IMG/VR virus record: IMGVR_UViG_3300007346_000047
Coordinates: 1-47,792 of that record
DNA length: 47,792 nt
Reading direction: 5' to 3' (one strand)
DNA from: a virus
Part shown: positions 2,556 to 38,332 of the stretch, piece after piece
How positions within the stretch are numbered: position 1 is the stretch's first letter
Layout: each line of letters begins with the position of its first letter
Translations under genes and position numbers: made by a program
The notes under the pieces: model-generated
Databases searched by the model: none
The model's input: only the letters and a program-made list of their open reading frames with translations
What the model was told of the DNA's origin: nothing

Positions 2556-2876
2556 TTATTTCTTCTTGACCATGCCGCCGCCGCGCATCTTCTTGACCAT
2601 GCCGCCGCCGCGCATCTTCCGCACAGGCGTCTTCTTAACCATGCCGCCGCGCATCTTCCGCACAGGCTCCGACTCCGGCTTCGGCTTCGGCTGTTTACGC
2701 GGGGGAGGCGGCTTCGCCATATTCTTTTTATTCTCTTCGTTCTGGGCAGCCACGGCAGAACCAAAATCGGGATCACCAACCGTTGTGTCCGAGCCGGAAG
2801 GCGGGCTCTGGAAACCACCCGCCCCCAAGTTAACGACAGAACCGCCATTGCTAAATCGCCTAGGTTTCATAGCCAT
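2556..2876 (-). CDS. Low-complexity basic protein with MRGGGMVKK repeats (106 aa)
   Basis: A clear AGGAG precedes the ATG at 2876. The N-terminus carries the RRFSNGGSV element that recurs in several virion proteins of this phage. The middle is Pro/Lys-rich, and the C-terminus has three copies of K-M-R-G-G-(G)-M-V-K-K. The DNA repeats at 2570-2660 reflect these copies. The basic repeat tail suggests nucleic-acid contact or a disordered virion peptide. I do not recognise a defined function. Confidence 0.6.
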   Translation of the reverse strand: MAMKPRRFSNGGSVVNLGAGGFQSPPSGSDTTVGDPDFGSAVAAQNEENKKNMAKPPPPRKQPKPKPESEPVRKMRGGMVKKTPVRKMRGGGMVKKMRGGGMVKKK

Positions 2877-3450
2877 TTTCTAGTCTCCTGTGAAAACGGT
2901 CCCGCTTTTCATAGATTTCACGGGCGTTATATTGATCGTCGTATACGTTATAATAACCTTTTTTATCCAGCTTGTCTGCGGCCTGTTGTAACTTAGATAA
3001 GCGCTGAACAAAAATCATCGCGTATTCTGTTGCTAGGCGCGGTGCAAAATCTACGTCCTGCACAAATTCGCTTTCCTCGTCATGTGGATGAAAACCCATA
3101 ACCCACATGTCCTTGTCGATGAACATGCCGTCAGAAATGGCGTCGTTTATTTGATCGAGATAATCGTGGAAAATTTTTGGGTCTTCGTCAAATTTAAAGT
3201 CTACAATTATGGCGAGGTCAAACAAATCGTCAAACCGAGAAATTGCGCTGTATAGACATTGCTTGTTGTTTTCGTACTTAAACAAGACAGAAACACTGTT
3301 GGATATCCAAGCTTGTTGAGCGTAAGGGCACGGTGGAAGGTCATTAAAGTGAGGACTAGGTTTTGACAGAACCTCAGAAGACCAATCTAGCAATTCTTGA
3401 TGAACCGCTTGTTCCGTATCCAAAGAAGGTGTCAAAAAAGCTAGGGTCAT
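2860..3450 (-). CDS. Conserved marine-phage hypothetical protein (196 aa)
   Basis: Starts on an ATGA overlap with the preceding gene. The segment NDLPPCPYAQQAWISNSVSV is a recognisable signature of a protein common in marine phage late regions. The rest is acidic and rich in aromatic residues, with a helical C-terminus (QRLSKLQQAADKLDKKGYY). No catalytic motif stands out. Its position among small basic proteins and adaptor genes suggests a virion or assembly role; this is inference. Confidence 0.65.
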   Translation of the reverse strand: MTLAFLTPSLDTEQAVHQELLDWSSEVLSKPSPHFNDLPPCPYAQQAWISNSVSVLFKYENNKQCLYSAISRFDDLFDLAIIVDFKFDEDPKIFHDYLDQINDAISDGMFIDKDMWVMGFHPHDEESEFVQDVDFAPRLATEYAMIFVQRLSKLQQAADKLDKKGYYNVYDDQYNAREIYEKRDRFHRRLENGYET

Positions 3451-3773
3451 GACTGCGTCACAGAACCCTTGGTTACTTTGCGTCGATTGTTCATAATCGC
3501 TCCACAGCCCCGCGCAACAACGCCACCCCGTGCCATGTTTTTTACTTTTGCGCTTTTTGTGTTGGAAACAACGTTTTCCCCCCTTGCGCCTCCTTTTTTC
3601 TTTTTACGAGCTGTAGCGGCGCGCTCTGATTGAGTGAGGCTCTTCGCTTTGCTGCGGGGCAAGCACCGGTCAGGGTTCTTTTTGTTTTTAGACGTCCCGC
3701 AGGCACCTTTGATTTTACCGTCCGTGCCTATTCTAACCCAATCTTGGTCGCGCCATTTTTTTAATTCACCCAT
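3447..3773 (-). CDS. DUF5872-like small basic protein with a GCGA-type tail (108 aa)
   Basis: The frame is open upstream to 4100, but that stretch overlaps two other genes. The ATG at 3773 begins MGELKKWRDQDWVRIG and overlaps the upstream gene by 8 bp. The N-terminal 80 residues (WVRIGTDGKIKGACG, then CLPRSKAKSLTQSERAATA and a Lys-rich stretch) match the DUF5872-type proteins found in marine phages and algal viruses. The last 30 residues (MARGGVVARGCGAIMNNRRK) match another small marine-phage family, apparently fused here in frame. Strongly basic; DNA or virion binding is inferred. Confidence 0.65.
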   Translation of the reverse strand: MGELKKWRDQDWVRIGTDGKIKGACGTSKNKKNPDRCLPRSKAKSLTQSERAATARKKKKGGARGENVVSNTKSAKVKNMARGGVVARGCGAIMNNRRKVTKGSVTQS

Positions 3774-3954
3774 TTTTTTTGCCCTTCGCCTTTTTGGCGT
3801 AGTTGGGGTCCTTACAATACTTTGAGGCCGCCATATTCGCATACGCGGATGGGTATGTGTCGAATGTACGCTCTGCCCAGGCTTTGCCTGCCGGACATAT
3901 TTTGCTTCCTTTGCTTTTTGAGGAAGATTTCTTAGACTTGCGTGAATAGGCCAT
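3766..3954 (-). CDS. Small Lys/Ser-rich conserved protein (62 aa)
   Basis: MAYSRKSKKSSSKSKGSKIC leads into AWAERTFDTYPSAYANMAA and a Lys-rich end. The WAxRTFDxYPSAYANxAAS pattern is recurrent in marine phages and large algal viruses, usually beside the DUF5872-like gene, as here. The protein is very basic (N- and C-terminal Lys clusters) and has two Cys residues that could bind metal. Function unknown. It overlaps the downstream gene by 8 bp. Confidence 0.65.
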   Translation of the reverse strand: MAYSRKSKKSSSKSKGSKICPAGKAWAERTFDTYPSAYANMAASKYCKDPNYAKKAKGKKNG

Positions 3955-3972
3955 TCCCTACTCCAAACAATT

Positions 3973-4257
3973 TTACCACGCCTTGCAAGACCAATACCTT
4001 GCGGAAAATTTATCTTTCGCGGTATCGCAAGAATGTCGAGCCCGGAAGTTGCTTCGACGTTTAGGCTGATCTTTTTTGATAGACATATTTGGGTCGCCAA
4101 AACGAACCAACTTAATTTCAGAACCTATTTTGGCGAGAACAGCGCTCTTTTTTGATTTACCGGGAGTCCGCTTTGGTTTGTTGTATCCTGCAAAGGTTTC
4201 TCCTCGATAACTCAATCTTCCAGAAGGAAGTCTTTTAACGTTTTTAGTAGTAGCCAT
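3973..4257 (-). CDS. Small basic conserved protein (94 aa)
   Basis: The sequence VKRLPSGRLSYRGETFAGYN, then FGDPNMSIKKDQPKRRSNF and RARHSCDTAKDKFSARYWSC, is a family signature shared by marine phages and algal viruses. The paired Cys residues near the end (RHSC, YWSC) could form a small metal-binding knuckle. It is the third small basic protein in a row, so these three may work together in the virion or on packaged DNA; that is inference. The start overlaps the upstream stop by one base. Confidence 0.65.
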   Translation of the reverse strand: MATTKNVKRLPSGRLSYRGETFAGYNKPKRTPGKSKKSAVLAKIGSEIKLVRFGDPNMSIKKDQPKRRSNFRARHSCDTAKDKFSARYWSCKAW

Positions 4258-9898: not shown

Positions 9899-10360
9899 TT
9901 AACTGTTTTCGAAATGGGGGCCATCAAGGAAGGGCCTACGACCTTCTGACCTTCGCAGGTCAATGTAAGCGTTCATAGCATCTTCCATAGTACCTTCGTG
10001 CAGACGTATATCCCGAACCTGCCACGCACCGCCCCAACGAATAGCAACCCCCGTCTCCTTAGCGGCCTGTTTCATGGCGTCCGCAAGCTCATCGTACGCC
10101 GACATCTCCCAACAAACTCGTCCCGATAGATAAGCCACGAGGTCTACAGCATTACCCGACAAGTGCTTAGAGTTCATGGTCTGACTTAAGCCTCGCGCCA
10201 CGAGCTCTTTCTGGCGCTCGATGGACCGTTTGCCCTCGGTAACACCAAAATCAATGGGGCTTAGTTCCAAAGCGCGCTTTACCGTGTCCGAAAGTTCCGG
10301 CTTAACCCCCAACAAACGTTCCCTAGAACGCGCAGAAAGTACCCAATTGTGACTGCTCAT
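9899..10360 (-). CDS. M15-type peptidoglycan peptidase (endolysin, 153 aa)
   Basis: The zinc-peptidase pattern of the L-alanyl-D-glutamate/D-Ala-D-Ala endopeptidases is present: TEGKRSIERQKELVARG, then SKHLSGNAVDLVAYLSG (His and Asp ligands) and the C-terminal DGPHFE (third ligand His). Length fits single-domain phage M15 endolysins. No signal peptide, so a holin is needed for access to the wall. It overlaps the 47-aa gene (ATGA), followed upstream by a holin and a membrane-coil protein, forming a lysis group. Confidence 0.85.
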   Translation of the reverse strand: MSSHNWVLSARSRERLLGVKPELSDTVKRALELSPIDFGVTEGKRSIERQKELVARGLSQTMNSKHLSGNAVDLVAYLSGRVCWEMSAYDELADAMKQAAKETGVAIRWGGAWQVRDIRLHEGTMEDAMNAYIDLRRSEGRRPFLDGPHFENS

Positions 10361-10500
10361 CGACCCTGCCCTCTATATTTTTTCCAATTTTTTCTTTTGT
10401 GTTTGTTCTTAGGGAAAGAACGGAAACTTTGACCAATGCTGGTGACGTGTTTGATCTTCGGCGGACGGGCCAAAGAACCAATTGATGCTCTGGCAACCAT
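10357..10500 (-). CDS. Small, very basic conserved protein (47 aa)
   Basis: Start overlaps the holin stop (TAATG) and stop overlaps the endolysin start (ATGA). The sequence MVARASIGSLARPPKIKHVT, then KNKHKRKNWKKYRGQGR, matches a short marine-phage protein ending in KxYRGQG(R/K). With 17 Lys/Arg in 47 residues it probably binds nucleic acid or acidic partners. No known function. Both overlaps argue that it is really translated. Confidence 0.6.
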   Translation of the reverse strand: MVARASIGSLARPPKIKHVTSIGQSFRSFPKNKHKRKNWKKYRGQGR

Positions 10501-10883
10501 TAGCTAATAACCTTACTGTCAGTTTTCTTGACCTTGTCGAAGCTCCTCATTCCCCCAATTCCGAGCATGCCTAGCAGAAGTGGCATCATCACGGACATAT
10601 CGGCCTGTGGAATCGACACTCCAAACCCCGCAGCAATGGGGCTGACCAAAAAATTCACCGCCATGCCCAGAACCGCCACATAGCCAGCCAACGGTCGCCA
10701 AGACGATTGAAACCAGTTGCCCTTTGCATCTGCCTTAAGCACCTCAATTTGCTGGAGAGTTACCTCCTGGGCATGTCGTTGTGACATCGTAGCCAGTTGA
10801 TGCGCGATTTTGGCTTTAGTGTCGGCGTCAGGAATTACTTTGTCCAACAATCCGGTAATTGGACCGATTAGTGCTGACAGCAT
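10500..10883 (-). CDS. Holin, GTA 3-TM type (127 aa)
   Basis: An amphipathic N-terminus (LSALIGPITGLLDKVIPDAD), a polar middle, and two clear hydrophobic segments (about residues 67-90, GYVAVLGMAVNFLVSPIAAG; and 97-114, VMMPLLLGMLGIGGM), ending in a Lys-rich tail. WFQSSWRPLAGYV before the membrane part is typical of holins known from alphaproteobacterial gene-transfer agents and related phages. It would permeabilise the inner membrane for the endolysin. Next to endolysin and membrane-coil genes. Confidence 0.75.
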   Translation of the reverse strand: MLSALIGPITGLLDKVIPDADTKAKIAHQLATMSQRHAQEVTLQQIEVLKADAKGNWFQSSWRPLAGYVAVLGMAVNFLVSPIAAGFGVSIPQADMSVMMPLLLGMLGIGGMRSFDKVKKTDSKVIS

Positions 10884-10892
10884 TTCAATCTC

Positions 10893-11243
10893 CTATTTCT
10901 CGTCATTGATGACAGGGTGCCTGCCATTGTGCATCGCAGCAAGTTTCGAGACCGAGCTATGAAGACTAGAAATTTCCGCCTGCATGGTGGCAACCTCGCG
11001 CGCTCGGCTCTCCATTTTGTCAGGTGCCAGCATACCGGACAAAACGCCCAGCTTCTGATTCGCCACTTCCATATGAGCCTGCTGCCGATCAACCGTTGAA
11101 TCCAATTTCCGCAGCCGGTGTTCGATGTCGGATAGCGTGTCAATGACTGCCGCCAATTTCGTTTTCACGATGACCGCAGCGCTGACCACCGAAACGCCCA
11201 TACCCGCCAGCGTGAGTATTAGACGTAAATCTAATTCACCCAT
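10893..11243 (-). CDS. Single-TM coiled-coil protein, lysis-associated (116 aa)
   Basis: Residues 8-27 (LILTLAGMGVSVVSAAVIVK) form one membrane segment. They are followed by a long helical stretch with heptad-like spacing (DTLSDIEHRLRKLDSTVDRQ, then MQAEISSLHSSVSKLAAMHN). Topology and neighbourhood resemble an inner-membrane spanin or a DUF2730-type protein. No outer-membrane lipoprotein partner was found, so a spanin role is only a possibility. Lies 9 bp upstream of the holin. Confidence 0.6.
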   Translation of the reverse strand: MGELDLRLILTLAGMGVSVVSAAVIVKTKLAAVIDTLSDIEHRLRKLDSTVDRQQAHMEVANQKLGVLSGMLAPDKMESRAREVATMQAEISSLHSSVSKLAAMHNGRHPVINDEK

Positions 11244-11471: not shown

Positions 11472-13933
11472 TGTGGCATACCTCCGCCATCGGGTTGTTG
11501 TTTCAAAATTTCTCGTTCCATTGCCGCATCAATGCGGGCCTGCGTTTGACGCTCTTGCGCTGCAATCCGCTCTTGGAACTGTTGTGCCCGCATTTCGGCG
11601 GTCTGCTGATCTAATTGTAACTTTCCTTGGTCAATTTGCGCATCCACCTGATCGGACTGCGCCCGAAGTTCCAGCTCTTTCTCCTTAAGCTGAACCACAG
11701 GGTCCGGAGCACCAGCCCCGGAAAGCTGACCAGAAAGTTCTTTTACTTGCTGCAAACCTTCTGCAATAAATTGAGCCGTTTGCTGCTCTATCTGTAGCAT
11801 CTCGTCTTCGTTTGCAACCCGACCACCGCGCTGTTGAACTTGCTGCATGTACTGAGACACAGACCTCTCGCTCGCTGCAATCCGCACATGCTCCATAATA
11901 TGTTTCTGTAGGCTCATAGCTATCGGGGGTGCTTGACCAACCAAGGCACTGCTCGCAAAAATTAAATGCGAGGTGATGTGAGCTTGGTGGTTCTGACCCT
12001 CAAAAGCTTTCAATGGCAACATATCTAAAGCGTTGATGTTTTCTTGAGCCGGGTCCAACGGTTCGGGAACTTCCGCCGGAATAGCTTTCATTAAACGATC
12101 TACGTCCGATACGCCTAAAGCCTCATACATGTCACGGTATACTTCGTGCATGTTGTGAATTTCCGGGGCCTGTGACGCCAATTGCATCTTTGTCTGAGCT
12201 AAGACAATTCTTTGAGCCTGACTAAACACATTTGGGTTGCTTACCGGAATGACGTCTACACGATCATCAAAGTCTTGAGCCATAACCGATTGGTCGTCGC
12301 CCGCCACGGCGTAAGGATATTCTTGCGGTAGACTTTCCGACATTACACGAGCCAAAATCTTAAACTCTTGGCGCATAGCATAGTGAAGGCGCTTGTGAAC
12401 GGCGCTCATGACCCTAGAGCCCTGCTCTAGCATCGCCATGGTAGTACCTACCGCAGCTTGATCGTTGCCGTCCCCAACCTTTAAATCGGTTATCGTAGCA
12501 AACCGCTGACCAGCTTGAACCACAAAACCTAAAAGATTGAATAACGTCTGATCCGGACCCTTAAACGGGAGCGGCATCAAACTATCCCGGATCGCGCCCC
12601 CCGGAGCATCCACGTCCCGGAACTCTCCGGGCTGAAGCGGGTCGTCATCGTCCCGGATGCGCAAACCACGCGCTTTAAAGCCCGCAGGGAGGTTGGAAAG
12701 GGTTCCAGCATCAATTAACTGACGAAGCGCCGACGTTGCCGTTCTTGACAAACCACCAATCGTGTGAATTAGGCCCAGTCCGTAAAAGCCGAAGCCCGGA
12801 AGGAACTTATAATGCGTGAAATACTGTATTTTACGCTTTAAAGTGTCATCTTCTTGGTAGTTCCGTCGAACAGACAGCACCTCGCCGTTATCCTGAGACA
12901 ACGTTACGATGTACGGAACTTTAATTCCAGTGGGTTCGCCGTCTTCGTCAAGGTCTTCGTAACCTTCCAAGTCTAAATCGACATGACACTCCAAAAGTGT
13001 GCAGTCGTAATCTACTTGATTAGGCTCAAAACCCTCAATTCTATCAATTTCTTGACCCACGCCTGAAGTGTTTTGCTGTGCAGGACTTACTTCAACGTCA
13101 CGATAGAAACCCGCAACTTGGTTTTTACGCAAATCGTTCAAAGACATTCGAACAACCTGCGTAATGTTAGGACATGTATCCAAATCAGACGTCTCGTAAG
13201 GAACGACAAGGTCCTCAGACGGGACAAATTTGGAAACCGCGCGACCTAACGTTTCGTCATAATACGTCTTTTTAAATGTTGAACCCGCCAAAGGCAGGTA
13301 GAACAACATTTGATCCATATCAGGCGTATATTCTTCCATCACACTCGTGATGTAATAGTTCATGAAAGTCTTTACGCGCCTAGCTTGCGCAACTTTCTCA
13401 CGAGTTTCGTTACCCATGACCACAGTTCGGACAGGGCCCGAAGAAGGCAACAATTCGTTAAACGCTTGAGCTTGAAATTGCGTCGCAGCTTCCGCCAAAA
13501 GCGGATGAGTGACGCCCGAAGCACCTCTAAACGGTTGCGTACGCTCGTTGTAAGTGAAACCCAGAAGGTCCAAACCATCCGCATAAGCTTCCTCCCATTC
13601 CTGCCTGCTCGCCTTATTAGAATCAAAATCCCCAGAAAGCTCGCTGGAAATACGACCTAGTTCACGCTCCGGGATTTCTTCTGCCAAGTTGGCGTAGAAA
13701 TCATCGGATTCGCCCCGCTCGTCCGACGGATCAAAGTCCACCTCGACGCTGCCGTCTTCTAAAGCCACAACCTCAACGGGGCCTTCGTCTTCGTCCTCTA
13801 ATTCATACGAAGCGTTTTCCAAAGTCCCCGGAAGCTCCAATTCGATTTCGGCCGCTAGGACGTCTGGGTCCAACTCAGAAGGAACACTGGTTTCCATTAA
13901 GCTGCTTTGAAAGCCGTTACGCTCTTCAGCCAT
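11468..13933 (-). CDS. Portal protein, P22-like (821 aa)
   Basis: The portal forms the dodecameric vertex through which DNA is packaged and ejected. The N-terminal 100 residues are very acidic. A core with AEAATQFQAQAFNELLPSSG, YLPLAGSTFKKTYYDETLGR and IHTIGGLSRTATSALRQLI is typical of podovirus portals. The last 120 residues are a Gln/Glu-rich helix (MRAQQFQERIAAQERQTQAR) like the P22 barrel. Start overlaps the stop of the 1251-aa gene (TAATG). Length is large but usual for this marine group. Confidence 0.85.
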   Translation of the reverse strand: MAEERNGFQSSLMETSVPSELDPDVLAAEIELELPGTLENASYELEDEDEGPVEVVALEDGSVEVDFDPSDERGESDDFYANLAEEIPERELGRISSELSGDFDSNKASRQEWEEAYADGLDLLGFTYNERTQPFRGASGVTHPLLAEAATQFQAQAFNELLPSSGPVRTVVMGNETREKVAQARRVKTFMNYYITSVMEEYTPDMDQMLFYLPLAGSTFKKTYYDETLGRAVSKFVPSEDLVVPYETSDLDTCPNITQVVRMSLNDLRKNQVAGFYRDVEVSPAQQNTSGVGQEIDRIEGFEPNQVDYDCTLLECHVDLDLEGYEDLDEDGEPTGIKVPYIVTLSQDNGEVLSVRRNYQEDDTLKRKIQYFTHYKFLPGFGFYGLGLIHTIGGLSRTATSALRQLIDAGTLSNLPAGFKARGLRIRDDDDPLQPGEFRDVDAPGGAIRDSLMPLPFKGPDQTLFNLLGFVVQAGQRFATITDLKVGDGNDQAAVGTTMAMLEQGSRVMSAVHKRLHYAMRQEFKILARVMSESLPQEYPYAVAGDDQSVMAQDFDDRVDVIPVSNPNVFSQAQRIVLAQTKMQLASQAPEIHNMHEVYRDMYEALGVSDVDRLMKAIPAEVPEPLDPAQENINALDMLPLKAFEGQNHQAHITSHLIFASSALVGQAPPIAMSLQKHIMEHVRIAASERSVSQYMQQVQQRGGRVANEDEMLQIEQQTAQFIAEGLQQVKELSGQLSGAGAPDPVVQLKEKELELRAQSDQVDAQIDQGKLQLDQQTAEMRAQQFQERIAAQERQTQARIDAAMEREILKQQPDGGGMPQ

Positions 13934-16900
13934 TAGTTTCTTCCTCCTAAGATCGACCGAAATGTATCCCTAAAGCGCCGGAACCGGCTCACAGGGTTTT
14001 TCGTGTCATCATCATTACCCGTAGAGTCCATACCAACAAAATGCGGTTCCGCACGAAGAACATTTTTCGTGTCATCATTATTACCCGTAGAGTCCATACC
14101 AACAAAATTTGTTTTTGGCCTGCGCTCAAAATCTTGTACTCCAAGGGCACTATCAATTTGAGCTTTGGTATAACCCTCCGAATTTAACGCAGACCTTATC
14201 TGAGTTGCGGCTTCTTCTTCCGCTCGACGCACAAGGTCAACAAGAGGTTGATATTCACGGTCTTTATATTTTTCAGGCAAATCCGCGACATTCCCGGTTT
14301 CCGACAAAGCCACGGCAGCCTTCATTTCCCCACTACTTAAATCGAGCATCTTTGAGTACAGGTCCAATTGTTTTTGGTTACGAGGGTCCATCCTACCATC
14401 GTCTACAAGACTTGATGCGTCATATATATTTATCAAAAACCGGTGTTCGTTTTTTCCGCCGCGGCCTCTTTCTCCTAGCACATTTGTAGTCAAAAGAGTT
14501 CCTAGCGCCGAATCTGTCCCCGTTGTTTCGATATAATCAGATAAACTGCTGCGAGCGCGAGTTAAAAAAGCATGTTCCAGTTCATGTCGAGACACTCTAG
14601 CCACGCGTTCATTGTTTGCTCGTGCGGCGTCACTGAGACCCTCTAAAGTATCTCCAGACGCTTCAGCCTGGGTTCTTCCGTATCGGTCTGTAATGTTGTT
14701 GACCAATACCCCTTTAACTCTGGGGTCCACAGTTTCTGGATTAAACCTGTCTCCCCCGTACATCAAACCTTGCAAGCCTTCATGTACAGGTATCGGAAAG
14801 CGCCCTTCAAAAACTGAACTATCATAAAGAGGCTTTCCCGAATCGAGATGGCGAAGGCGACCTCGGTATGCTTGATCGAGAAGGGTGGTACCCGAAAGAC
14901 GACGTAATGTTACGGGACGAACGTCAAGATCATCCGACAATAAAGGGATTTCAGTTCCTGAGCCGCCTAATCCCGGTCTTGTCTGACGCATCATAAGTTC
15001 CGCAGAAGCTAAAGGACTACCTTCGATGTGCGGAGCCACAGTGTGAGCAAACTCGTCGTCCGCTAGACGAATTAAATCTCGACGCGGAACGCGTGAGATA
15101 CCACCTAAACGGGGCGGCCTGTCCGGGGGCAACCGCTGAGATCGAACAGAACCCCCGTCTGCAAAGGTCTCTATAGAAAACAAGTCCGAGGCGGACCGTA
15201 ATAACCGGAGGAAATAGGTTTCTTCTTCCGGACCAAAAGCGGCCTCAATATGAGCTTGGGAAAAACCGTCTCTTTTTAAGACAGGTTTAATCTGTTCCAT
15301 AAGCTCTTCTTCCGCTTTTTTTAACTCCTTAGCCGCCTCTAAACTGATCTCCTTTACTTGATACTTTTCGGGTATCCTCAAGCCCTTGTCTTCTTCCGAC
15401 GAGCGATCCCTAGCTAATTCAATCCCGGCCTGCATGGCGGAAACACTGTTTCCGTTTAGGAAGCCCCAAGTATCTAGCTGTTCTTCGTCCGTCGGGTCTA
15501 AACTACCCGATTTAATTGCGGAGGCTACGTCTAAAATATTTATGTACGCCAAGTGATCGTTAGAAACGCTGGGCCTCTTATCTGGATTTGGTTGCAAAAT
15601 CCTGCCCAAGGCCGAATCTTTACCTTTTACGCTTACATAAGGAGGAGAGTTGGGATCGTACGCAGTCGTTCTAAGGTGTGTTAATCCAGCATGAATTAGT
15701 TCGTGTTGCAGCGTTTCCGCTTGAGAAACGGTTTTAACTTCTGAAGATATTTGTCCCGTATCCGGGTCTCTGTGGTATTTTTCTACGAAAGGGGGAGCGG
15801 TCTGATTAAGAAGTATTCCGGTTTCAGACCCGGTCAACGATTTGGGTGTTGGAAAGTTCGCTCCGCGGACACCGGGTGCCAACCGAGCCTGAAGTTCGGC
15901 TAGGCTTAAGCCGCGGTTACGCAACCCACCCAAATAGTAATTTTGGCGCACGTCGTTTCCGTCTTTTATGACCGGACGTACGTTTAAAAAGTCCGAAATA
16001 CTAGTCGGCTCGTTGTTCGGGGAAAATTCTTCACCCTCGTAAGCTCCCGGATTGGCCGTGCGACGCAAAAGCTCCATACGTGCAATGGGGTTTGTAATGT
16101 AAGGGTCAACCGTATGAACAAACTCATTATCCGCCATACGAACTAAATCGGGGCTCGGCGAAACTTCTTGAACACCACCTAAAAGGGGCGGCCTGCGAGG
16201 GGGCAACCGCTGAGATCGAACAGAACCCCCGTCTGCAAAGGTCCTTATCGGATCGCTCGAAGAATTAAGAATGCGACTAGCTTGATCCAAAACTTGTGGG
16301 GACGCGTTCCGGCCCAGAAGCTTACGGGCTACCGCGTCGTCCCGACGGTCCATGGACCCTAAACGAGCGGCCATAAAGTCCGGGAAGGTGCCCGCATCTC
16401 TAAACTCACGGGCCGCGGACAAACCTACAACTCCGCCGTCCGCATACTCTGAGCCGTCATCGGCTCCCATGCCATCATTTTCTGATCCATCCGGGCCACC
16501 AGAGCCACCGCCACCGCCGCCACCGCCGCCGCCACCACCGCCGCCACCGCCGCCATCACCGCCAGGGCCACCTCCGGTGTCGTCGCCAGCGGCATCGTTA
16601 TCTGTACCGCCGACAGCACCCTCGTTACCCCCTGGTCCTGGACCATCACCCCCCGCGCCGGTGTCATCGCCGCCATAGCCGCTAGGACCCATGCCCACGC
16701 TATGGCCCGTATCCATGCCGGGATCGGCTGGAGCATCATCCCCCAAACCTAGATAGTCCGCTATATTACCGAATATGCTTTTTCCCGTTGTCGCTTGAGA
16801 AACTGCATTTGCTATAGCCGAGACAGCACCAAGGCCCGTCGTCATACCAAGTGCTGTCGCGGCAGAGCCCATAAAAGACCCAATGTCGGGTGAAGTCGCT

Positions 16901-17688
16901 GTACCCGTATCGGTTGAAGGGTCCCCATAACCGCCACCGCCGCCATCTCCGGAACCCGTTAAACCGTCCGCCAATACCTCTGCACTGACCGAGTCCGCGG
17001 CGTAACTTACTGGACTGTCGAAAAGTCCGCCAATACCCGAACCGAACGACCTTTGTCTCTGAAATACCGGAGCCGAAGTCGTTAAAGGACCCGAATAACG
17101 CGCGGGCTCCATGCTGATCCGACCGCCGTTCGCGAACCTTCTCGGCTCGTCCAATTGATCCAAATACGGACCTATGCCGCCAACCGCGCCGCCATCTTCA
17201 AACCTATATTTTTTATTTAAATAAACCCCGCCTTCACCCGTTCTGGGATCATAACGTCCGCTTGCACTAAAACCCCCCGGAGACTCATACCGACCCTCAA
17301 GCGGCCCCCGCTCAATGCCGGGCGTGCCAAATTTTATATTTTCCGGCGCACCCCGTGCCCGTAATTCGTCACTAAACTCAACTTCGCCACTAAGGTAATT
17401 TAACGGAACACCCACCGTGAACCTATCGCCGTCAGGACCCACAACCGTTGCGCCAACCTTACCGCTACCGCCACTTTGACTAACCGTGAAACCGTCTCTC
17501 GGGCTCTCACGCCCAAAAAAACCCTCCGCAAACATCTCTGGTTCAATCCCAAAACCGGCTAAACCCGGAATCCCCACAGAAAAACCACGGTCCGTGGGCC
17601 GAGGAGAACCGGCACCTAAATCTACACGGCTACCACCCCCTTCGACCACTTTGTCAATTTCCGAGTCTTGTAATCGGTATCGGTCCAT
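13933..17688 (-). CDS. Large virion-region protein with two duplicated HExxH domains (1251 aa)
   Basis: The frame opens at 17739 inside terL; the ATG at 17688 (MDRYRLQDSEIDKV) is preferred. Residues 1-210 are Gly-rich and beta-like. Around 390-415 is a run of about 17 Gly. Two related modules begin at FADGGSVRSQRLPP (about residues 483 and 841). Each carries a zincin-like motif, HELIH at 662-666 and HELEH at 1035-1039. Each motif is followed about 40 residues later by (N/E)H and an INIxD element that could supply the third ligand. The C-terminus has two copies of FVGMDSTGN. Likely a virion protein with peptidase activity (inferred); it lies between terL and portal. Confidence 0.7.
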   Translation of the reverse strand: MDRYRLQDSEIDKVVEGGGSRVDLGAGSPRPTDRGFSVGIPGLAGFGIEPEMFAEGFFGRESPRDGFTVSQSGGSGKVGATVVGPDGDRFTVGVPLNYLSGEVEFSDELRARGAPENIKFGTPGIERGPLEGRYESPGGFSASGRYDPRTGEGGVYLNKKYRFEDGGAVGGIGPYLDQLDEPRRFANGGRISMEPARYSGPLTTSAPVFQRQRSFGSGIGGLFDSPVSYAADSVSAEVLADGLTGSGDGGGGGYGDPSTDTGTATSPDIGSFMGSAATALGMTTGLGAVSAIANAVSQATTGKSIFGNIADYLGLGDDAPADPGMDTGHSVGMGPSGYGGDDTGAGGDGPGPGGNEGAVGGTDNDAAGDDTGGGPGGDGGGGGGGGGGGGGGGGGSGGPDGSENDGMGADDGSEYADGGVVGLSAAREFRDAGTFPDFMAARLGSMDRRDDAVARKLLGRNASPQVLDQASRILNSSSDPIRTFADGGSVRSQRLPPRRPPLLGGVQEVSPSPDLVRMADNEFVHTVDPYITNPIARMELLRRTANPGAYEGEEFSPNNEPTSISDFLNVRPVIKDGNDVRQNYYLGGLRNRGLSLAELQARLAPGVRGANFPTPKSLTGSETGILLNQTAPPFVEKYHRDPDTGQISSEVKTVSQAETLQHELIHAGLTHLRTTAYDPNSPPYVSVKGKDSALGRILQPNPDKRPSVSNDHLAYINILDVASAIKSGSLDPTDEEQLDTWGFLNGNSVSAMQAGIELARDRSSEEDKGLRIPEKYQVKEISLEAAKELKKAEEELMEQIKPVLKRDGFSQAHIEAAFGPEEETYFLRLLRSASDLFSIETFADGGSVRSQRLPPDRPPRLGGISRVPRRDLIRLADDEFAHTVAPHIEGSPLASAELMMRQTRPGLGGSGTEIPLLSDDLDVRPVTLRRLSGTTLLDQAYRGRLRHLDSGKPLYDSSVFEGRFPIPVHEGLQGLMYGGDRFNPETVDPRVKGVLVNNITDRYGRTQAEASGDTLEGLSDAARANNERVARVSRHELEHAFLTRARSSLSDYIETTGTDSALGTLLTTNVLGERGRGGKNEHRFLINIYDASSLVDDGRMDPRNQKQLDLYSKMLDLSSGEMKAAVALSETGNVADLPEKYKDREYQPLVDLVRRAEEEAATQIRSALNSEGYTKAQIDSALGVQDFERRPKTNFVGMDSTGNNDDTKNVLRAEPHFVGMDSTGNDDDTKNPVSRFRRFRDTFRSILGGRN
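13997..14108. repeat. 46-bp direct repeat, 66-bp period, in C-terminus of the 1251-aa gene
   Basis: Positions 13997-14042 and 14063-14108 match with one difference and encode FVGMDSTGN(N/D)DDTKN twice. The 66-bp period equals 22 codons, the same period as the repeat at the left end. Confidence 0.9.
15125..16243. repeat. Perfect 45-bp direct repeats marking the duplicated domain
   Basis: Bases 15125-15169 and 16199-16243 are identical over 45 bp and 1074 bp apart (358 codons). They encode the FADGGSVRSQRLPP start of each HExxH module. The rest of the two modules has diverged much more, so the identity here suggests recent recombination or gene conversion at this point. Confidence 0.9.
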
Positions 17689-17701: not shown

Positions 17702-19165
17702 TTAATAGTACGCACGCACCTTAACAGATGTTGCGTCATCTTCCCAGTCGTCCACCGGCAACTGAATAAAGTTACCCTGACGATACCGCATTAAAGCCTG
17801 CGTCATACTATCAACCAAATCATCATACTCCCCATTGGGAAATGCCGCTACCTCCTCAATCATCTCATCCGCCCAAGTCTCGTCCGGAACCCAAACCATT
17901 CCCGCCTCAAACAACGGACTCACACTGTGTACTCGCGAAACCTTGTCATTACCCCTACTAGGCGTGAAATTTACTACCGGAATGCCCATGTTCCGCAACT
18001 CCTGCGTCAACGGCAAACCACTCGCCTTAGCCTCAATGATAACCGTGTCCGGCTCCCAAAACCTATACAAATCTAAAGCCTCTTTTTTTAAATCCGGAAA
18101 ATCCCAACGGCCCTTCTTACTGTCTAACAATATTAAATTGGGACCACTCCCGCCCTCATTCGGGTAAAATACACCCCACGTCGTTATAGCACTGTAATCC
18201 GAAGTCTCTCGCTTACTGAAAGCCGTGTCGTAACTCTGTATGACATACTCTAACTGCGGAACACGATCCTTATCCCAACGCTTCCACCACTCCCGCGGAA
18301 TGATCGCATTCTCCTCACCCGTCGGATTCTGCTGATACTGAGCATTCCACTTGCTCGGAGGTATTGATGCGCGGACCGCGGTTAAATCTTCTAAACTCCA
18401 ATACTCCGGCCAACACGGAGAACCATCCTCAAATATCGCCGGTAACTCAACAATCTCCCACTGGTCCGCTAAAGGGTCCTTCGCCATCGCACGAACTAAT
18501 TGACCCGTCATGTCCTTCTCTGACCAACGCGTCTGAACCAAAACTATACTGCCACCCGGCTGTAAACGCTGACGAGGTCCACCAGTATACCACTCCCAAG
18601 CATCCTCAAAACCAGCATTCGACATAGCCGTCTGCTCTGAATGCGGATCGTCAATAATTACTAAATCACCACCGCGTCCAGCCAAGTTCGAACCCACACC
18701 AACCGCATAATACATCCCGCCAGATGACGTGTCCCAACGACCAGACGCCTTGCTGTCCGACGCTAACTTAACCTTCGGAAAAATCTCCTTGTACTCATCA
18801 CTCTCAATCAAATTCTTCGTCTTACGTCCAAAATTTACAGCCAACTCCGTCGTGTGCGTCGCCTGAATGATCTTCATTCGCGGACTGAGGCCCATCATCC
18901 ACGCCGGAAACAAAAATGACGCAAACTCACTCTTCGTGTGCCGCGGAGCCATGTTAATAATTAAACGCTTTAAATCACCGCTCGCTACTCGCTCCAACTT
19001 CTCCGCTATAATCTTATGATGACGGCCAGCAATGAACTCAGGCCAAACCGTCTTCACAAAACTTAAAAAATTATCTCGACAAGCTTCATTCTGCTCAAGC
19101 TGCGCGAGCCTTAGACGAAGCTTCAATTCTTTCTCATCTAAGGCCGCGGACCGCGGTGCTTTCAT
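17702..19165 (-). CDS. terL: Terminase large subunit (487 aa)
   Basis: The motor-nuclease cuts and pumps DNA into the prohead. ATPase motifs: a Walker A-like INMAPRHTKSEF, Walker B LVIIDDPHS and the coupling motif VQTRW. RNase H-like nuclease residues: QSYDTAFS (Asp), VIIEAKASG (Glu) and the C-terminal DDLVDSMTQAL (Asp). Start chosen at the ATG at 19165 after a GGGGG site; a TTG four codons upstream is possible. The small subunit is not adjacent but 4 kb away, and a repeat complex fills the upstream 700 bp. Confidence 0.9.
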   Translation of the reverse strand: MKAPRSAALDEKELKLRLRLAQLEQNEACRDNFLSFVKTVWPEFIAGRHHKIIAEKLERVASGDLKRLIINMAPRHTKSEFASFLFPAWMMGLSPRMKIIQATHTTELAVNFGRKTKNLIESDEYKEIFPKVKLASDSKASGRWDTSSGGMYYAVGVGSNLAGRGGDLVIIDDPHSEQTAMSNAGFEDAWEWYTGGPRQRLQPGGSIVLVQTRWSEKDMTGQLVRAMAKDPLADQWEIVELPAIFEDGSPCWPEYWSLEDLTAVRASIPPSKWNAQYQQNPTGEENAIIPREWWKRWDKDRVPQLEYVIQSYDTAFSKRETSDYSAITTWGVFYPNEGGSGPNLILLDSKKGRWDFPDLKKEALDLYRFWEPDTVIIEAKASGLPLTQELRNMGIPVVNFTPSRGNDKVSRVHSVSPLFEAGMVWVPDETWADEMIEEVAAFPNGEYDDLVDSMTQALMRYRQGNFIQLPVDDWEDDATSVKVRAYY

Positions 19166-19250
19166 GGGGGCCCCCAAAGTTATTTATATGCGATTAGTAC
19201 CTTATAATAGTACACCATATCATTTTTTATGGGAATATTTGTGAGAAACA
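19166..19250 (-). promoter_or_regulatory. AT-rich terL leader with TAATCGCATA motif
   Basis: The 85 bp before terL are AT-rich in an otherwise very GC-rich stretch. On the minus strand they contain TATTATAAGGTAC and then TAATCGCATATAA, sharing the TAATCGC core found at other promoter-like sites (22948, 23952, 28214). No good -35 box is seen at 17 bp. A palindromic GGGGGCCCCC lies in the ribosome-site region. Confidence 0.35.
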
Positions 19251-19353
19251 TGGCCCTAGCACCCGCCGGTCGGCCCCGGGGGCCGCGCGCCGGGGGCGGG
19301 CGGATCGGGCCGGGTGGTGATGGCGGAATGACCCGATATCCAGGGGCCCCGGG

Positions 19354-19720
19354 GCGACATCGGGCCGGGGGATGTCGGGCCGGGGATGTCGGGCCGGGGG
19401 ATGTCGGGCCGGGGCGACATCGGGCCGCCGGACATCGGGCCGGTGACATCGGGCCGCCGGACATCGGGCCGGTGACATCGGGCCGCCGGACATCGGGCCG
19501 GTGACATCGGGCCGCCGGATGTCGGGCCGGTGACATCGGGCCGCCGGATGTCGGGCCAGGCGACATCTGGCCGGGAGATGTCGGGCCGCCGGATGTCGGG
19601 CCGCCGGATGTCGGGCCGGGCGACATCTGGCCGGGAGATGTCGGGCCGCCGGATGTCGGGCCGGGGCGACATCTGCAGGGCAGATCGGGCCGCCGGATGT
19701 CGGGCCGGGGAACATCGGCA
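19354..19720. repeat. GC-rich array of ~25 units of about 15 bp upstream of terL
   Basis: Units of the form GACATC or GATGTC followed by GGGCCG recur 25 times, spaced mostly 15 bp, with alternating 14/15 bp (29-bp period) in the middle. The hexamer flips between its two reverse-complementary forms while GGGCC keeps its orientation. All frames are open on both strands only because of composition, and the 14-bp steps break any reading frame, so I treat it as non-coding. Confidence 0.85.
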
Positions 19721-24334: not shown

Positions 24335-25069
24335 TCAGAGCTGCGCCTGCAACAAATCTGCTCCAGTACCCGTAACGGCCTCCCGCTTCAATACTTCGGG
24401 GTGGCTATCAACACTATCCAGCATCCACAAATAAGCGGCGGCATGGTCGTTGTCGCCGTGCGTTTCCTCTATGGCAGCGCGGAACTCGGCGACGGTCTTG
24501 TCTTGGAAACAGCCGGTCCAAAAACGTAATCCGACGCCACACTTATGAACGATGGTGGTGTGCCGTCCCTCAGAACCAATGGGGCCGATGGACATAAACC
24601 AGTCGCCCTTTTCGATATTCGCGCGCGGGCCGATATTCGCGCCGGGGCCGATATCCGCGCCGAGGCCGATATCCGCGCCGAGGCCGATATTTGCGTTTTC
24701 GCCGATATACGCGCCGGGGCCGATCTTCGCGTCTTCGCCGATATACGCGTAAGGGCCGATATCCGCGTCGGAGCCGATCTTCGCGCCGGGGCCGATATTC
24801 GCGCGCGGGCCGATCTTCGCGCCGGGGCCGATCTTCGCCTCGGAGCCGATATTTGCGCGCGGGCCGACCTTCGCGTCAGAGCCGATCTTCGCGCGGGGGC
24901 TGATATACGCGTCGGGGCCAATCTCTATTGATGCGCTTAGTGTTAATCCCTCCGCAATCCGTGCCGTCACCGCGACAATAGCGCCTTCGGAACCATCCGG
25001 GTTGATATGCCTGCGGGCCTCGGCTTCAAGCCAACCGAAGAACTTGTGTGTGAAGATTTCGTTGCTCAT
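24335..25069 (-). CDS. Left-handed beta-helix (hexapeptide repeat) protein (244 aa)
   Basis: Residues 50-155 contain about 17 consecutive hexapeptides of the type I-G-x-x-A-x (IGPGAK, IGPRAN, IGSDAD and so on), the hallmark of LpxA-type left-handed beta-helices. The N-terminus (FFGWLEAEARRHINPDGSEG) and the C-terminal domain (FMSIGPIGSEGRHTTIVHKC, AEFRAAIEETHGDNDHAAAY) match domains known from other phage proteins of this kind. No acetyltransferase catalytic loop is obvious, so an adhesive, scaffold or DNA-mimic role is possible. Preceded by a coupled 20-aa leader. Confidence 0.75.
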   Translation of the reverse strand: MSNEIFTHKFFGWLEAEARRHINPDGSEGAIVAVTARIAEGLTLSASIEIGPDAYISPRAKIGSDAKVGPRANIGSEAKIGPGAKIGPRANIGPGAKIGSDADIGPYAYIGEDAKIGPGAYIGENANIGLGADIGLGADIGPGANIGPRANIEKGDWFMSIGPIGSEGRHTTIVHKCGVGLRFWTGCFQDKTVAEFRAAIEETHGDNDHAAAYLWMLDSVDSHPEVLKREAVTGTGADLLQAQL

Positions 25070-35596: not shown

Positions 35597-37054
35597 TTGT
35601 TTGAAATGATTGGTTACGAGTTTAAAACGAAACCCTACAAACATCAGGAAAAAGCGTTAAGCGCTTGTTGGGACTCAACTTTTTTTGCTCTGTTCATGGA
35701 GATGGGGACCGGTAAGACAAAAGTCGCCATCGACAATATGGCTGTTCTTTACGAAAAAGGTGAAATAACTTCCGCACTCGTCATAGCTCCAAAAGGCGTT
35801 TACGACAATTGGGTTCGCAATGAAATCCCCACGCACCTGCCGGAAAGAATAAACCGTCAGGTCATGCGTTGGGTTCCGAAAAAAACTAAAACATATGAAT
35901 CGGAGTTGGTGGATTTTGTGCTTTCAAAAGAAAGCATGTTGAAGATATTTGTTATGAACGTTGAAGCGTTATCCACGAAGCGTGGAGTGGAAGCTGCGGA
36001 AGCGTTTTTGCACCAAAACCCAGAGAATTTTGTCCTCGTAGACGAATCCACCACTATAAAAAATAGAAAAGCCGCTCGTACAAAAAACATCATGTCACTT
36101 AGGGTGCTATCTAAATATCGACGCATCCTGACAGGGTCTCCCATTACGAAAAGCCCTATGGATTTGTTTAGCCAGAGCCTGTTCTTAGACAAGCGCGCCT
36201 TAAATTATAACAGCTATTTCGCGTTCCAAGCCCGATATGCCGTGGTCCGTCAACGATCCGTGGGGCACCGCAGTTTTCAAGAAATTGTTGGATATCGCAG
36301 GCTGGACGAACTGTCCGAAAAGTTGGACCAGTTTAGCTACCGCGTGCTCAAACAAGATTGTCTGGACCTACCGGAAAAAGTATTTGTCCGGCGCGAAGTT
36401 GAATTAACCAAAGAGCAGAGGTCCGCTTACGACCAGATGGTGGTATGGGCCTTGGCCGCTTTGGGCAACGGCGAAGTTGCGACCACGTCGAACGTACTGA
36501 CGCAAATTATGCGCCTGCAACAAATCTGCTGCGGTCACATAACGACCGACGAAGGTGTTTTAAAAGAACTTCCCAACAACCGCTTGTCTACTTTGATGGA
36601 TTTGGCCGAGGAAGTGCAGGGCAAAGCTATAATTTGGGCGACATACACTCATGATATCAAGAGCATATCTAATGCACTCAGCGACCGTTTTGGACCGGAT
36701 TCGGTGGCTACATACTACGGAGAAACGCCGCAGGACGAACGGCAGCAGATCGTTAATTGGTTTCAGGACGAAATCAGCCCGCTTCGGTTTTTCGTCGGAC
36801 AACCTAGAACCGGCGGATATGGCATTACGCTGACCGCGGCAAACACCGTCGTTTATTATAGCAACAGCTATGACCTAGAAATCCGCCTTCAATCGGAAGA
36901 CAGAGCGCACCGCATTGGTCAAACCAACAAGGTCACATACGTGGACCTTGTATCTCCAAAAACCGTGGATGAAAAGATTTTGGAAGCTCTACGAGATAAA
37001 ATTATTCTCGCGGGCGAAGTCCTTAAAGAAGAAGCCCGAAAGTGGCTGACCTAA
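35597..37054 (+). CDS. SNF2-family DNA helicase/translocase (485 aa)
   Basis: The only plus-strand gene. Motif I MGTGKTKVA (residues 36-44), motif II VLVDESTTIKN, motif III LTGSPITKSP, motif V-like TGGYGITLTAANTV and motif VI QSEDRAHRIGQTN are typical of SNF2 (DEAD/H SF2) proteins. Phage members of this type translocate on DNA in replication, repair or recombination. An AGGAG ribosome site precedes the ATG. It is driven by the rightward arm of the divergent promoter. Its 3' end overlaps the opposing gene by 4 bp. Confidence 0.9.
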   Translation: MFEMIGYEFKTKPYKHQEKALSACWDSTFFALFMEMGTGKTKVAIDNMAVLYEKGEITSALVIAPKGVYDNWVRNEIPTHLPERINRQVMRWVPKKTKTYESELVDFVLSKESMLKIFVMNVEALSTKRGVEAAEAFLHQNPENFVLVDESTTIKNRKAARTKNIMSLRVLSKYRRILTGSPITKSPMDLFSQSLFLDKRALNYNSYFAFQARYAVVRQRSVGHRSFQEIVGYRRLDELSEKLDQFSYRVLKQDCLDLPEKVFVRREVELTKEQRSAYDQMVVWALAALGNGEVATTSNVLTQIMRLQQICCGHITTDEGVLKELPNNRLSTLMDLAEEVQGKAIIWATYTHDIKSISNALSDRFGPDSVATYYGETPQDERQQIVNWFQDEISPLRFFVGQPRTGGYGITLTAANTVVYYSNSYDLEIRLQSEDRAHRIGQTNKVTYVDLVSPKTVDEKILEALRDKIILAGEVLKEEARKWLT

Positions 37055-38331
37055 ACAAGATTGGAAAATCCGCCCGCTTTTTCTTCGGCGGCCCGCGCCA
37101 AAAGTTGTTGGGTAAAATCAGCCCCCGCGGAAGGGTTGAAGTCGAAATAATCAGGCCTTTGCATGTATTCCGGCACAGCCAAGTATTCTGTGTTGTTTAA
37201 TAGCGCGCCGCCCGGTGCCCGGATAGGGCGTGGAGACCGTACCTGTGCCCGCGACTCTGGTCTTATCTGCATTGTTACAGGAGAAACAGACCCTTCTTTT
37301 GGTTCAGCGGCATATGCTCCGATCCCGCCAGAGGAGCCGTAGGCCGTGGCCCGCGCGACGTCGTCTTTTGAGGGGTCTCCAAAGTCCAAGGGGTCTTCAA
37401 AGTCCAAGGGGCCTACGTTTTCTGCGGGGGCTTCGCGGTTCAAGGTGTTTACGGCTCCCGCATCTTCCAACAAGTTAGAATAGAATTTACGAGACGCGTC
37501 AAAAACGGCCTTATATTCCGGCAAAGCCTCTGACAACAAACGTTCAAACTCACTAAAACTTCCATATTTGCTAAGAAGAATGTTATGGAAGTTTTCCAAC
37601 TCCCGCATCTCTACCGCAGATGATTCATCATTAATGTTGTTTCTCAGCTCTTCTAAGCGAGCGTAATCGGAAAGAACCTCTTCTTCAAAAGTTAACGACG
37701 GGTCGCCATCTGAAACCGACGTCACAGGGACTTCCAGTTCAGAAAGTTCTGGAACCCGGCCGCCCTCTGCAAAGGACTGCAAAGGACTACCAAACGGAGA
37801 CATATTTGATTGTCCGTCGCCGCTAAATAAATTGCCGAAGACAGACCCTATGCCCTGGCCTATGCCCTGTTGAGCAACAGTGGGCAGGGGCATGTTAGAC
37901 CCAAACGGAGATATATTTGATTGTCCGCCGCCGCTAAATAAACTGCCGAAGACAGACCCTATGCCCTGGCCAACGCTCTGAGAAAAACCCGGAGATACAT
38001 TTGACTGTCCGCCGCCACCAAATATTTGTTCTTCAGCGCGCCTAATGTCGCTTATAAAATCATTTAATTTTTTGTCGTTAGGTCTGATATGCTTGTTGCG
38101 AAGAGCATCAGCATAATCGTTAAGAAAATTCCCTGGGCCCCTATTTGAGCCCATTCTCGGACCTGTCGTCGATCTGTCTCGCGAGACATCATATATAGGC
38201 GAGCCAACCGAAAAAGCCGCCCCTGCGGGTAAAGGTCCATATTTGCTGGGATAACTATTTAAATTTTGAGCGCGCTTCCGCGCGCTGGGATAACTATTTA
38301 ATTCTTGTAAAGTAAGAACTGGCATGCTCAT
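37051..38331 (-). CDS. Gly-rich internal virion protein (426 aa)
   Basis: ATG at 38331 (MSMPVLTLQELNSYPS) chosen over an upstream TTG; GGGAG lies ahead. NSYPS is duplicated at the start. Three imperfect repeats of GGQSN(V/I/M)SP and VGQGIGSVFGSLFSGG occupy about residues 110-195, then SFAEGGRVPELSE, the GG element shared with other virion proteins. The rest is helical and acidic. Most likely a minor ejection protein. Ends the internal-protein cluster and overlaps the helicase gene's end. Confidence 0.6.
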   Translation of the reverse strand: MSMPVLTLQELNSYPSARKRAQNLNSYPSKYGPLPAGAAFSVGSPIYDVSRDRSTTGPRMGSNRGPGNFLNDYADALRNKHIRPNDKKLNDFISDIRRAEEQIFGGGGQSNVSPGFSQSVGQGIGSVFGSLFSGGGQSNISPFGSNMPLPTVAQQGIGQGIGSVFGNLFSGDGQSNMSPFGSPLQSFAEGGRVPELSELEVPVTSVSDGDPSLTFEEEVLSDYARLEELRNNINDESSAVEMRELENFHNILLSKYGSFSEFERLLSEALPEYKAVFDASRKFYSNLLEDAGAVNTLNREAPAENVGPLDFEDPLDFGDPSKDDVARATAYGSSGGIGAYAAEPKEGSVSPVTMQIRPESRAQVRSPRPIRAPGGALLNNTEYLAVPEYMQRPDYFDFNPSAGADFTQQLLARAAEEKAGGFSNLV

Positions 38332-38332
38332 C

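What the first reader, a model, noticed from the sequence alone, without database searches (positions are those of the whole stretch)
13933..17688. Virion-region protein with two duplicated HExxH (zincin-like) modules
Two related modules of about 350 residues each carry HELIH (662-666) and HELEH (1035-1039), both followed about 40 residues later by (N/E)H plus an INIxD element. Keeping HExxH in both diverged copies suggests selection for metal binding. A duplicated putative metallopeptidase in a gene between terL and portal is not a feature I know from characterised phages. It could process capsid proteins or act in host entry.
Basis: partly seen in the sequence, partly recalled or inferred. 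Interest (0 to 1): 0.75.

Follow-up and report, generated by a model that had tools for sequence, protein, structure and literature searches.

The report
Swappable zincin-like modules in phage cargo
A marine-type phage carries, between its DNA-packaging motor gene and its portal gene, a fast-evolving mosaic protein with two related metal-protease-like modules; in related phages the same spot holds many other swapped-in domains, so it looks like a loading bay for cargo proteins that may be carried in the particle and injected into the host.

Summary
The ORF is on the minus strand (13933-17688, 1251 aa). It has two ~357-aa modules, 33% identical, each with HExxH and, 47-50 residues on, [D/E]H plus INIxD. 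Homologues at ~20% identity keep H, E, L, H and a [D/E]H. This supports a zincin-like metal site, but the fold is not proved: no Pfam or PDB match, no significant Foldseek match, and similarity to the N4 virion-RNAP metallopeptidase domain is confined to 12 columns at the motif.

The larger finding is the locus. In 49 relatives where terL and portal were both seen, five have nothing between them. The others carry proteins of 114-951 aa. Most share an N-terminal tag (VNLGAG-like) and F/Y/M-x-D/E/N-GG motifs. Their bodies vary: zincin-like modules (single or paired, two independent pairings), a second HExxH type, ART-PolyVal, PcfJ, DUF6973. The window gene evolves at dN/dS 0.48-0.94 against 0.02-0.16 for terL and portal, and near-identical phages differ in which module they hold.

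Best reading: a polyvalent-type modular cargo or effector protein, probably packaged and delivered, rather than a capsid-maturation protease. New variant of a known kind.

The parts
13933..17688 (-). slot protein (1251 aa): mosaic protein with tag, glycine-rich region, and two zincin-like modules
   Evidence: reading frame kept in L001-L005
17608..17631 (-). SRVDLGAG: the N-terminal tag shared with most proteins in the same slot of related phages
17188..17202 (-). FEDGG motif
   Evidence: kept in L003, L004, L005
17122..17136 (-). FANGG motif
16432..16446 (-). YADGG motif
15169..16239 (-). module 1 (aa 501-857 of the long frame), HELIH type
   Evidence: profile hit E 1e-163 (the module is itself a row of that profile)
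15691..15705 (-). HELIH, candidate metal-binding and catalytic motif of module 1
   Evidence: invariant H, E, L, H in 13 aligned modules
15553..15558 (-). Asp-His (D728 H729), candidate third metal ligand of module 1
14095..15165 (-). module 2 (aa 859-1215 of the long frame), HELEH type
   Evidence: profile hit E 3e-142 (the module is itself a row of that profile)
14572..14586 (-). HELEH, candidate metal-binding and catalytic motif of module 2
14443..14448 (-). Glu-His (E1098 H1099), candidate third metal ligand of module 2
16199..16239 (-). 41-bp linker DNA (FADGGSVRSQRLPP) at the start of module 1, identical to that of module 2
15125..15165 (-). 41-bp linker DNA at the start of module 2, identical to that of module 1
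13996..14106 (-). C-terminal tail with a twice-repeated FVGMDSTGN(N/D)DDTKN peptide
   Evidence: translation
17702..19177 (-). terL (large terminase), one border of the slot
   Evidence: phrog_38 E 2e-111, PF17289
11468..13933 (-). portal, other border of the slot
   Evidence: phrog_1216 E 3e-51; HTVC027P portal 52% identical

Best explanation
The gene is the occupant of a hypervariable cargo slot between terL and portal in a large group of podovirus-like phages related to pelagiphages HTVC023P/HTVC027P. It makes a mosaic, polyvalent-type protein: an N-terminal tag and a probably beta-rich region, glycine-rich linkers with F/Y-x-D/E/N-GG motifs, and two tandem zincin-like modules. Each module probably binds one metal ion through HExxH and the downstream [D/E]H. 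The most likely mode of action is that the protein is made late with the head genes, is loaded into the particle through its shared N-terminal part, enters the host with the DNA, and there the modules cut host (for example defence) proteins or release parts of the protein itself. Modules are gained, lost and exchanged, helped by near-identical linker DNA. Shown here: motif and residue conservation, the slot, module turnover, fast evolution, and swapping with other conflict-type domains. Inferred: metal binding, proteolysis, packaging, delivery, and target.
For: Homologues at ~20% identity in the same slot keep H, E, L, H and a [D/E]H. The slot is variable: 5 of 49 empty, the rest 114-951 aa (up to 1251 aa with the window family). 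The tag is present in 42 of 55 complete slot proteins, and GG motifs number 65 against 5.9 expected. HExxH is found in 10 of 61 slot proteins against 0.16 expected, in at least two unrelated types plus L097. Same-slot domains include ART-PolyVal with a weak GNAT match (L031), PcfJ (DSL-LC04) and DUF6973. L031, L085 and L087 share the same C-terminal end but carry ART or HExxH domains. Module turnover: phages with 99% identical portals have both modules, only module 1 or only module 2. A second, independent pairing exists in L102/L103. dN/dS is 0.48-0.94 against 0.02-0.16 for terL and portal. Polyvalent proteins with 1-5 metallopeptidase domains, thought to be packaged and injected, are documented (PMC5512222).
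Against: No profile or structure library names the module a peptidase. Two AlphaFold models (pLDDT 61 and 75) found no significant PDB match. Profile similarity to the N4 vRNAP metallopeptidase covers only 12 columns at the motif (P 7e-4, probability 27%). Nothing shows that the protein is in the virion; packaging rests on position and analogy. High dN/dS could also reflect weak constraint.
Confidence: 0.5

Rival explanations
1. Self-processing protease: the modules cut their own polyprotein, for instance at the repeated F/Y-x-D/E/N-GG linkers, to free the N-terminal part or the modules before packaging or after entry.
For: GG motifs lie at the junctions of the N-terminal region and of both modules and are kept in L003-L005. 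Autoproteolysis is the role proposed for the P1 DdrB metallopeptidase (PMC5512222).
Against: Most slot proteins have the GG motif but no HExxH module. The motif also occurs in other late-region proteins of the window.
Confidence: 0.2
2. Capsid or head maturation protease.
For: Position among head genes; no other prohead protease was recognised in the window.
Against: Absent from most relatives with the same head genes, slot empty in five, fast evolving, and the module content differs between phages with 99% identical portals.
Confidence: 0.05
3. Not packaged: an accessory protein made in the cell during infection (anti-defence or superinfection exclusion) that only happens to sit between terL and portal.
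For: No direct virion evidence. Accessory genes are often inserted between structural genes in phages (general knowledge).
Against: The tag shared by otherwise different cargoes in one slot, and the conflict-type domains typical of packaged polyvalent proteins.
Confidence: 0.17
4. Degenerate or binding-only module: the HExxH is kept for structure or binding, without catalysis.
For: dN/dS near 0.5-0.9 in the modules; no fold match.
Against: H, E, L, H and a [D/E]H are kept in every complete module seen, across ~20% identity and across both paralogues.
Confidence: 0.08

Closest known systems
Phage-type polyvalent proteins with zincin-like MPTase domains (J Bacteriol 2017, PMC5512222)
   Same: Large multidomain proteins of terminase-portal phages; one to five HExxH domains per protein; slot relatives carry ART-PolyVal and PcfJ-like domains; high domain turnover
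   Different: No recognised MPTase, LPD or other polyvalent domain profile in the window protein itself; fixed position between terL and portal; shared N-terminal tag and GG motifs, not mentioned in the passages of that paper read here
C-terminal metallopeptidase domain of N4 virion RNA polymerase (Schitoviridae)
   Same: HELxHA motif preceded by an ETL-like stretch; an acidic third-ligand candidate further downstream; large phage protein
   Different: Profile similarity confined to 12 columns; no RNA polymerase part; N4 vRNAP is a virion protein, this one is untested
PcfJ-like protein of phage DSL-LC04 (OR003939)
   Same: Same place between terL and portal, with MADGG and FAEGG motifs; portal 51% identical to the window's
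   Different: PcfJ domain instead of HExxH modules; no hit to the module profile
P1 Dar proteins (DarA, DdrB)
   Same: Internal head proteins ejected with DNA; DarA loses an N-terminal piece during assembly (PMC12810830); DdrB was reported to carry an MPTase domain (PMC5512222)
   Different: Different phage type; no sequence comparison made here

Membership tests
Zincin-like metallopeptidases | HExxH in a helix | tested here: met
   Motif in 13 of 13 modules; in both models it lies in a long helix
Zincin-like metallopeptidases | Third metal ligand (E, D or H) downstream, in a second helix | tested here: inconclusive
Zincin-like metallopeptidases | Core beta sheet before the HExxH helix; overall zincin fold | tested here: inconclusive
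   Homologue model shows short strands at 80-110 before the HExxH helix 116-136; window module model lacks a clear sheet; no PDB match below E 1
Zincin-like metallopeptidases | Significant sequence or profile match to a known family | tested here: not met
   Pfam, PHROGs, NCBIfam, PDB sequences: none; N4 domain profile P 7e-4 over 12 columns only
Phage polyvalent proteins | Several unrelated effector-type domains in one polypeptide | tested here: inconclusive
   Window protein has two copies of one module plus unannotated N-terminal parts; a slot relative (L031) has ART-PolyVal with a weak GNAT match
Phage polyvalent proteins | Encoded by phages with portal-terminase packaging, with variable domain content | tested here: met
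   terL and portal flank the gene; slot census
Phage polyvalent proteins | Packaged in the head and delivered to the host | not testable with these tools
   Needs virion proteomics
Prohead maturation proteases | Conserved, essential head gene | tested here: not met
   Slot empty or without HExxH in most relatives; module content varies among phages with 99% identical portals

The most novel reading that the evidence does not exclude
The short N-terminal peptide (V/I-N/D-L-G-A/S-G/A), together with F/Y/M-x-D/E/N-GG motifs, is a loading signal that sends interchangeable cargo enzymes into the heads of a widespread group of phages, with the terL-portal gap as a dedicated cassette site for effectors, including a new family of zincin-like proteases.
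Probability: 0.3. Interest if true: 0.75.

Novelty: new variant of a known kind. Interest (0 to 1): 0.55.

Why it matters
If the protein is packaged, this locus would be a natural catalogue of injected phage effectors, found by position rather than by homology. The shared N-terminal tag would give a testable head-loading signal. The HExxH modules would be a new peptidase family to test against host defence proteins. Even if it is not packaged, the slot explains why such proteins are annotated as unknown: the bodies change while the borders and tag stay.

Tried and rejected
Family searches of the window protein (Pfam, PHROGs, NCBIfam, PDB sequences) gave nothing usable. tblastn against 50,697 annotated phages found no relative of the protein. 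A scan of genome contigs with the homologue alignment A5 found no relative, so there is no host or prophage copy by that test. Fold search of the window module gave only nuclear receptors and similar noise. Fold search of the better homologue model gave no PDB match, and viral hits that include virion and polyvalent proteins but at E 0.3 or worse, so they are not used as evidence. Comparison of the module with the second HExxH type (L085, L087) showed no relation. Further viral scans with narrower alignments added only L102/L103 and re-found known loci. Considered and rejected: a single simple internal duplication as the full story, because each module also exists alone in other phages and a second pairing arose elsewhere. 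Capsid protease: rejected on dispensability. Whether the GG motif is a cleavage site could not be tested here.

Full report
Observation. The gene is on the minus strand. The two modules are real: 33% identical over ~360 residues, E 4e-48. Each has HExxH (679-683 and 1052-1056 of the long frame) and 47-50 residues later [D/E]H followed by INIxD. Two HExxH are not expected by chance (0.015% of shuffles).

Relatives. A scan of viral contigs found 11 loci. Some have both modules (L001, L002, L004), some only the HELIH module (L003, and the truncated L006, L007, L009), some only the HELEH module (L005, and the truncated L008); every complete module keeps HExxH. The flanking genes are almost unchanged: portal 99.3-99.6% and terL 99.2-99.8% identical between the window and L003, L004 and L005, while the slot protein is only 85-96% identical in its aligned parts. 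dN/dS is 0.48-0.94 in the slot protein and 0.02-0.16 in terL and portal. In L009, L006 and L007 the module has a much lower dS to the window than the portal has (0.15 against 0.69 in L009), as expected if modules spread by recombination. The first 41 bases of the two linkers are identical, and identity falls to 57% over the first 180 bases, so the linker DNA is a likely crossover site. The last point is inference.

The slot. Portal relatives (74% identity or more) gave 80 loci. In 49 the end of terL was seen; five of these have no gene between terL and portal (gaps of 18-40 bases), and the others have one or two proteins of 114-951 aa. Of 55 complete slot proteins of at least 130 aa, 42 have the tag [VI][ND]LG in the first 45 residues. 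In 61 slot proteins, including the window family, there are 65 [FYM]x[DEN]GG motifs against 5.9 in shuffled sequences. The bodies are linked in one large single-linkage cluster because they share pieces, which is what a mosaic family gives; six clusters in all. In cultured phages the same place holds a PcfJ-like protein (DSL-LC04), two proteins (HTVC027P), a 201-aa protein (HTVC023P), or nothing (CRP-902, overlapping genes).

HExxH in the slot. Ten of 61 slot proteins have HExxH against 0.16 expected. L023, L074, L078 and L102/L103 carry homologues of the window module at ~20% identity. L023, L074 and L078 helped build the profile, so the independent test is the first domain of L102/L103, which was not in it: E 9e-53. 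L102/L103 carry two such modules, HELAH and HELEH, in an independent pairing. In the module tree the window's two modules and their copies form one group and the L023-type modules another (100/100, midpoint root), so the window pair goes back to a duplication within its own group, followed by gains and losses. L085 and L087 have a different HExxH protein (HELQH/HEVQH, GEAEARNVQRR), with no profile relation to the module. They share their C-terminal end with L031, whose middle is ART-PolyVal (E 4e-8) with a weak GNAT match (E 0.009). This is domain exchange within a constant shell.

Is it a zincin? For: the motif; the [D/E]H found in every module; and a homologue model (pLDDT 75) in which short strands precede the HExxH helix and [D/E]H sits in the next main helix. 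This resembles the order described for polyvalent metallopeptidases in PMC5512222. Against: no database names it, fold searches are not significant, and the profile match to the N4 domain, though above all 40 shuffled controls (score 35.0 against at most 17.1), covers only 12 columns around the motif. The register of the third ligand is uncertain: the automatic alignment sets the window His against Glu (or Asp) of the homologues, while matching the [D/E]H pairs sets D/E against D/E. I put a metal-binding zincin-like module at about 0.65.

Function. PMC5512222 reports that about 36% of polyvalent proteins have one to five metallopeptidase domains, that the phage-type ones come from terminase-portal phages and are likely packaged, and proposes self-processing or cutting of host proteins. 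The window protein fits this kind by position, mosaic build, turnover, and the company of ART-PolyVal and PcfJ in the same slot. It does not carry any of the named domain profiles itself, so it is filed as a new variant, not a proven member. Packaging and delivery are inference. A paper on HTVC023P-type genomes did not mention this slot in the terms searched (PMC9599517).

Limits. Most relatives are contig fragments. The census depends on ORF calling with a simple rule and on motif patterns chosen after seeing the data, so the enrichment figures describe the pattern and are not formal tests. dN/dS values are simple pairwise counts. Only two structure models could be made, and no coordinates were available. 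The host is unknown.

Noticed in passing
window 19349-19718: G+C-rich tandem array (15, 29 and 60-base periods) just upstream of terL; the ORFs called there look spurious.
   Followed up: no
window 24335-25069: Protein with many IGPxAxIG hexapeptide repeats (18-base DNA period), likely a left-handed beta-helix.
   Followed up: no
window 9899-11243: Possible lysis genes (SxHxxGxAxD-like motif of M15-type peptidases, two small membrane-type proteins) lie between portal and scaffold; read by eye, no family search made.
   Followed up: no
window 37051-38346, 42812-45067, 3447-4100: FAEGGRV, FRDGGIV and MARGGVV motifs in other late-region proteins; 3 against 1.06 expected, so weak on its own.
   Followed up: partly
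L031:1-1296: Slot protein with ART-PolyVal and a weak GNAT match, in the same C-terminal shell as the HExxH proteins L085 and L087.
   Followed up: partly
L086:1897-4855: Two slot proteins in a row, the first with tag and GG motifs, the second with the L085-type C-terminal shell but no recognised domain.
   Followed up: no
L097:128-1375: A third kind of HExxH slot protein (HEVAH) with no detected relation to the others.
   Followed up: no
window 2561-2619: Perfect 27-base tandem repeat inside the arginine-rich start of ORF 1886-2848, which may be a wrong start or a frame artefact.
   Followed up: no
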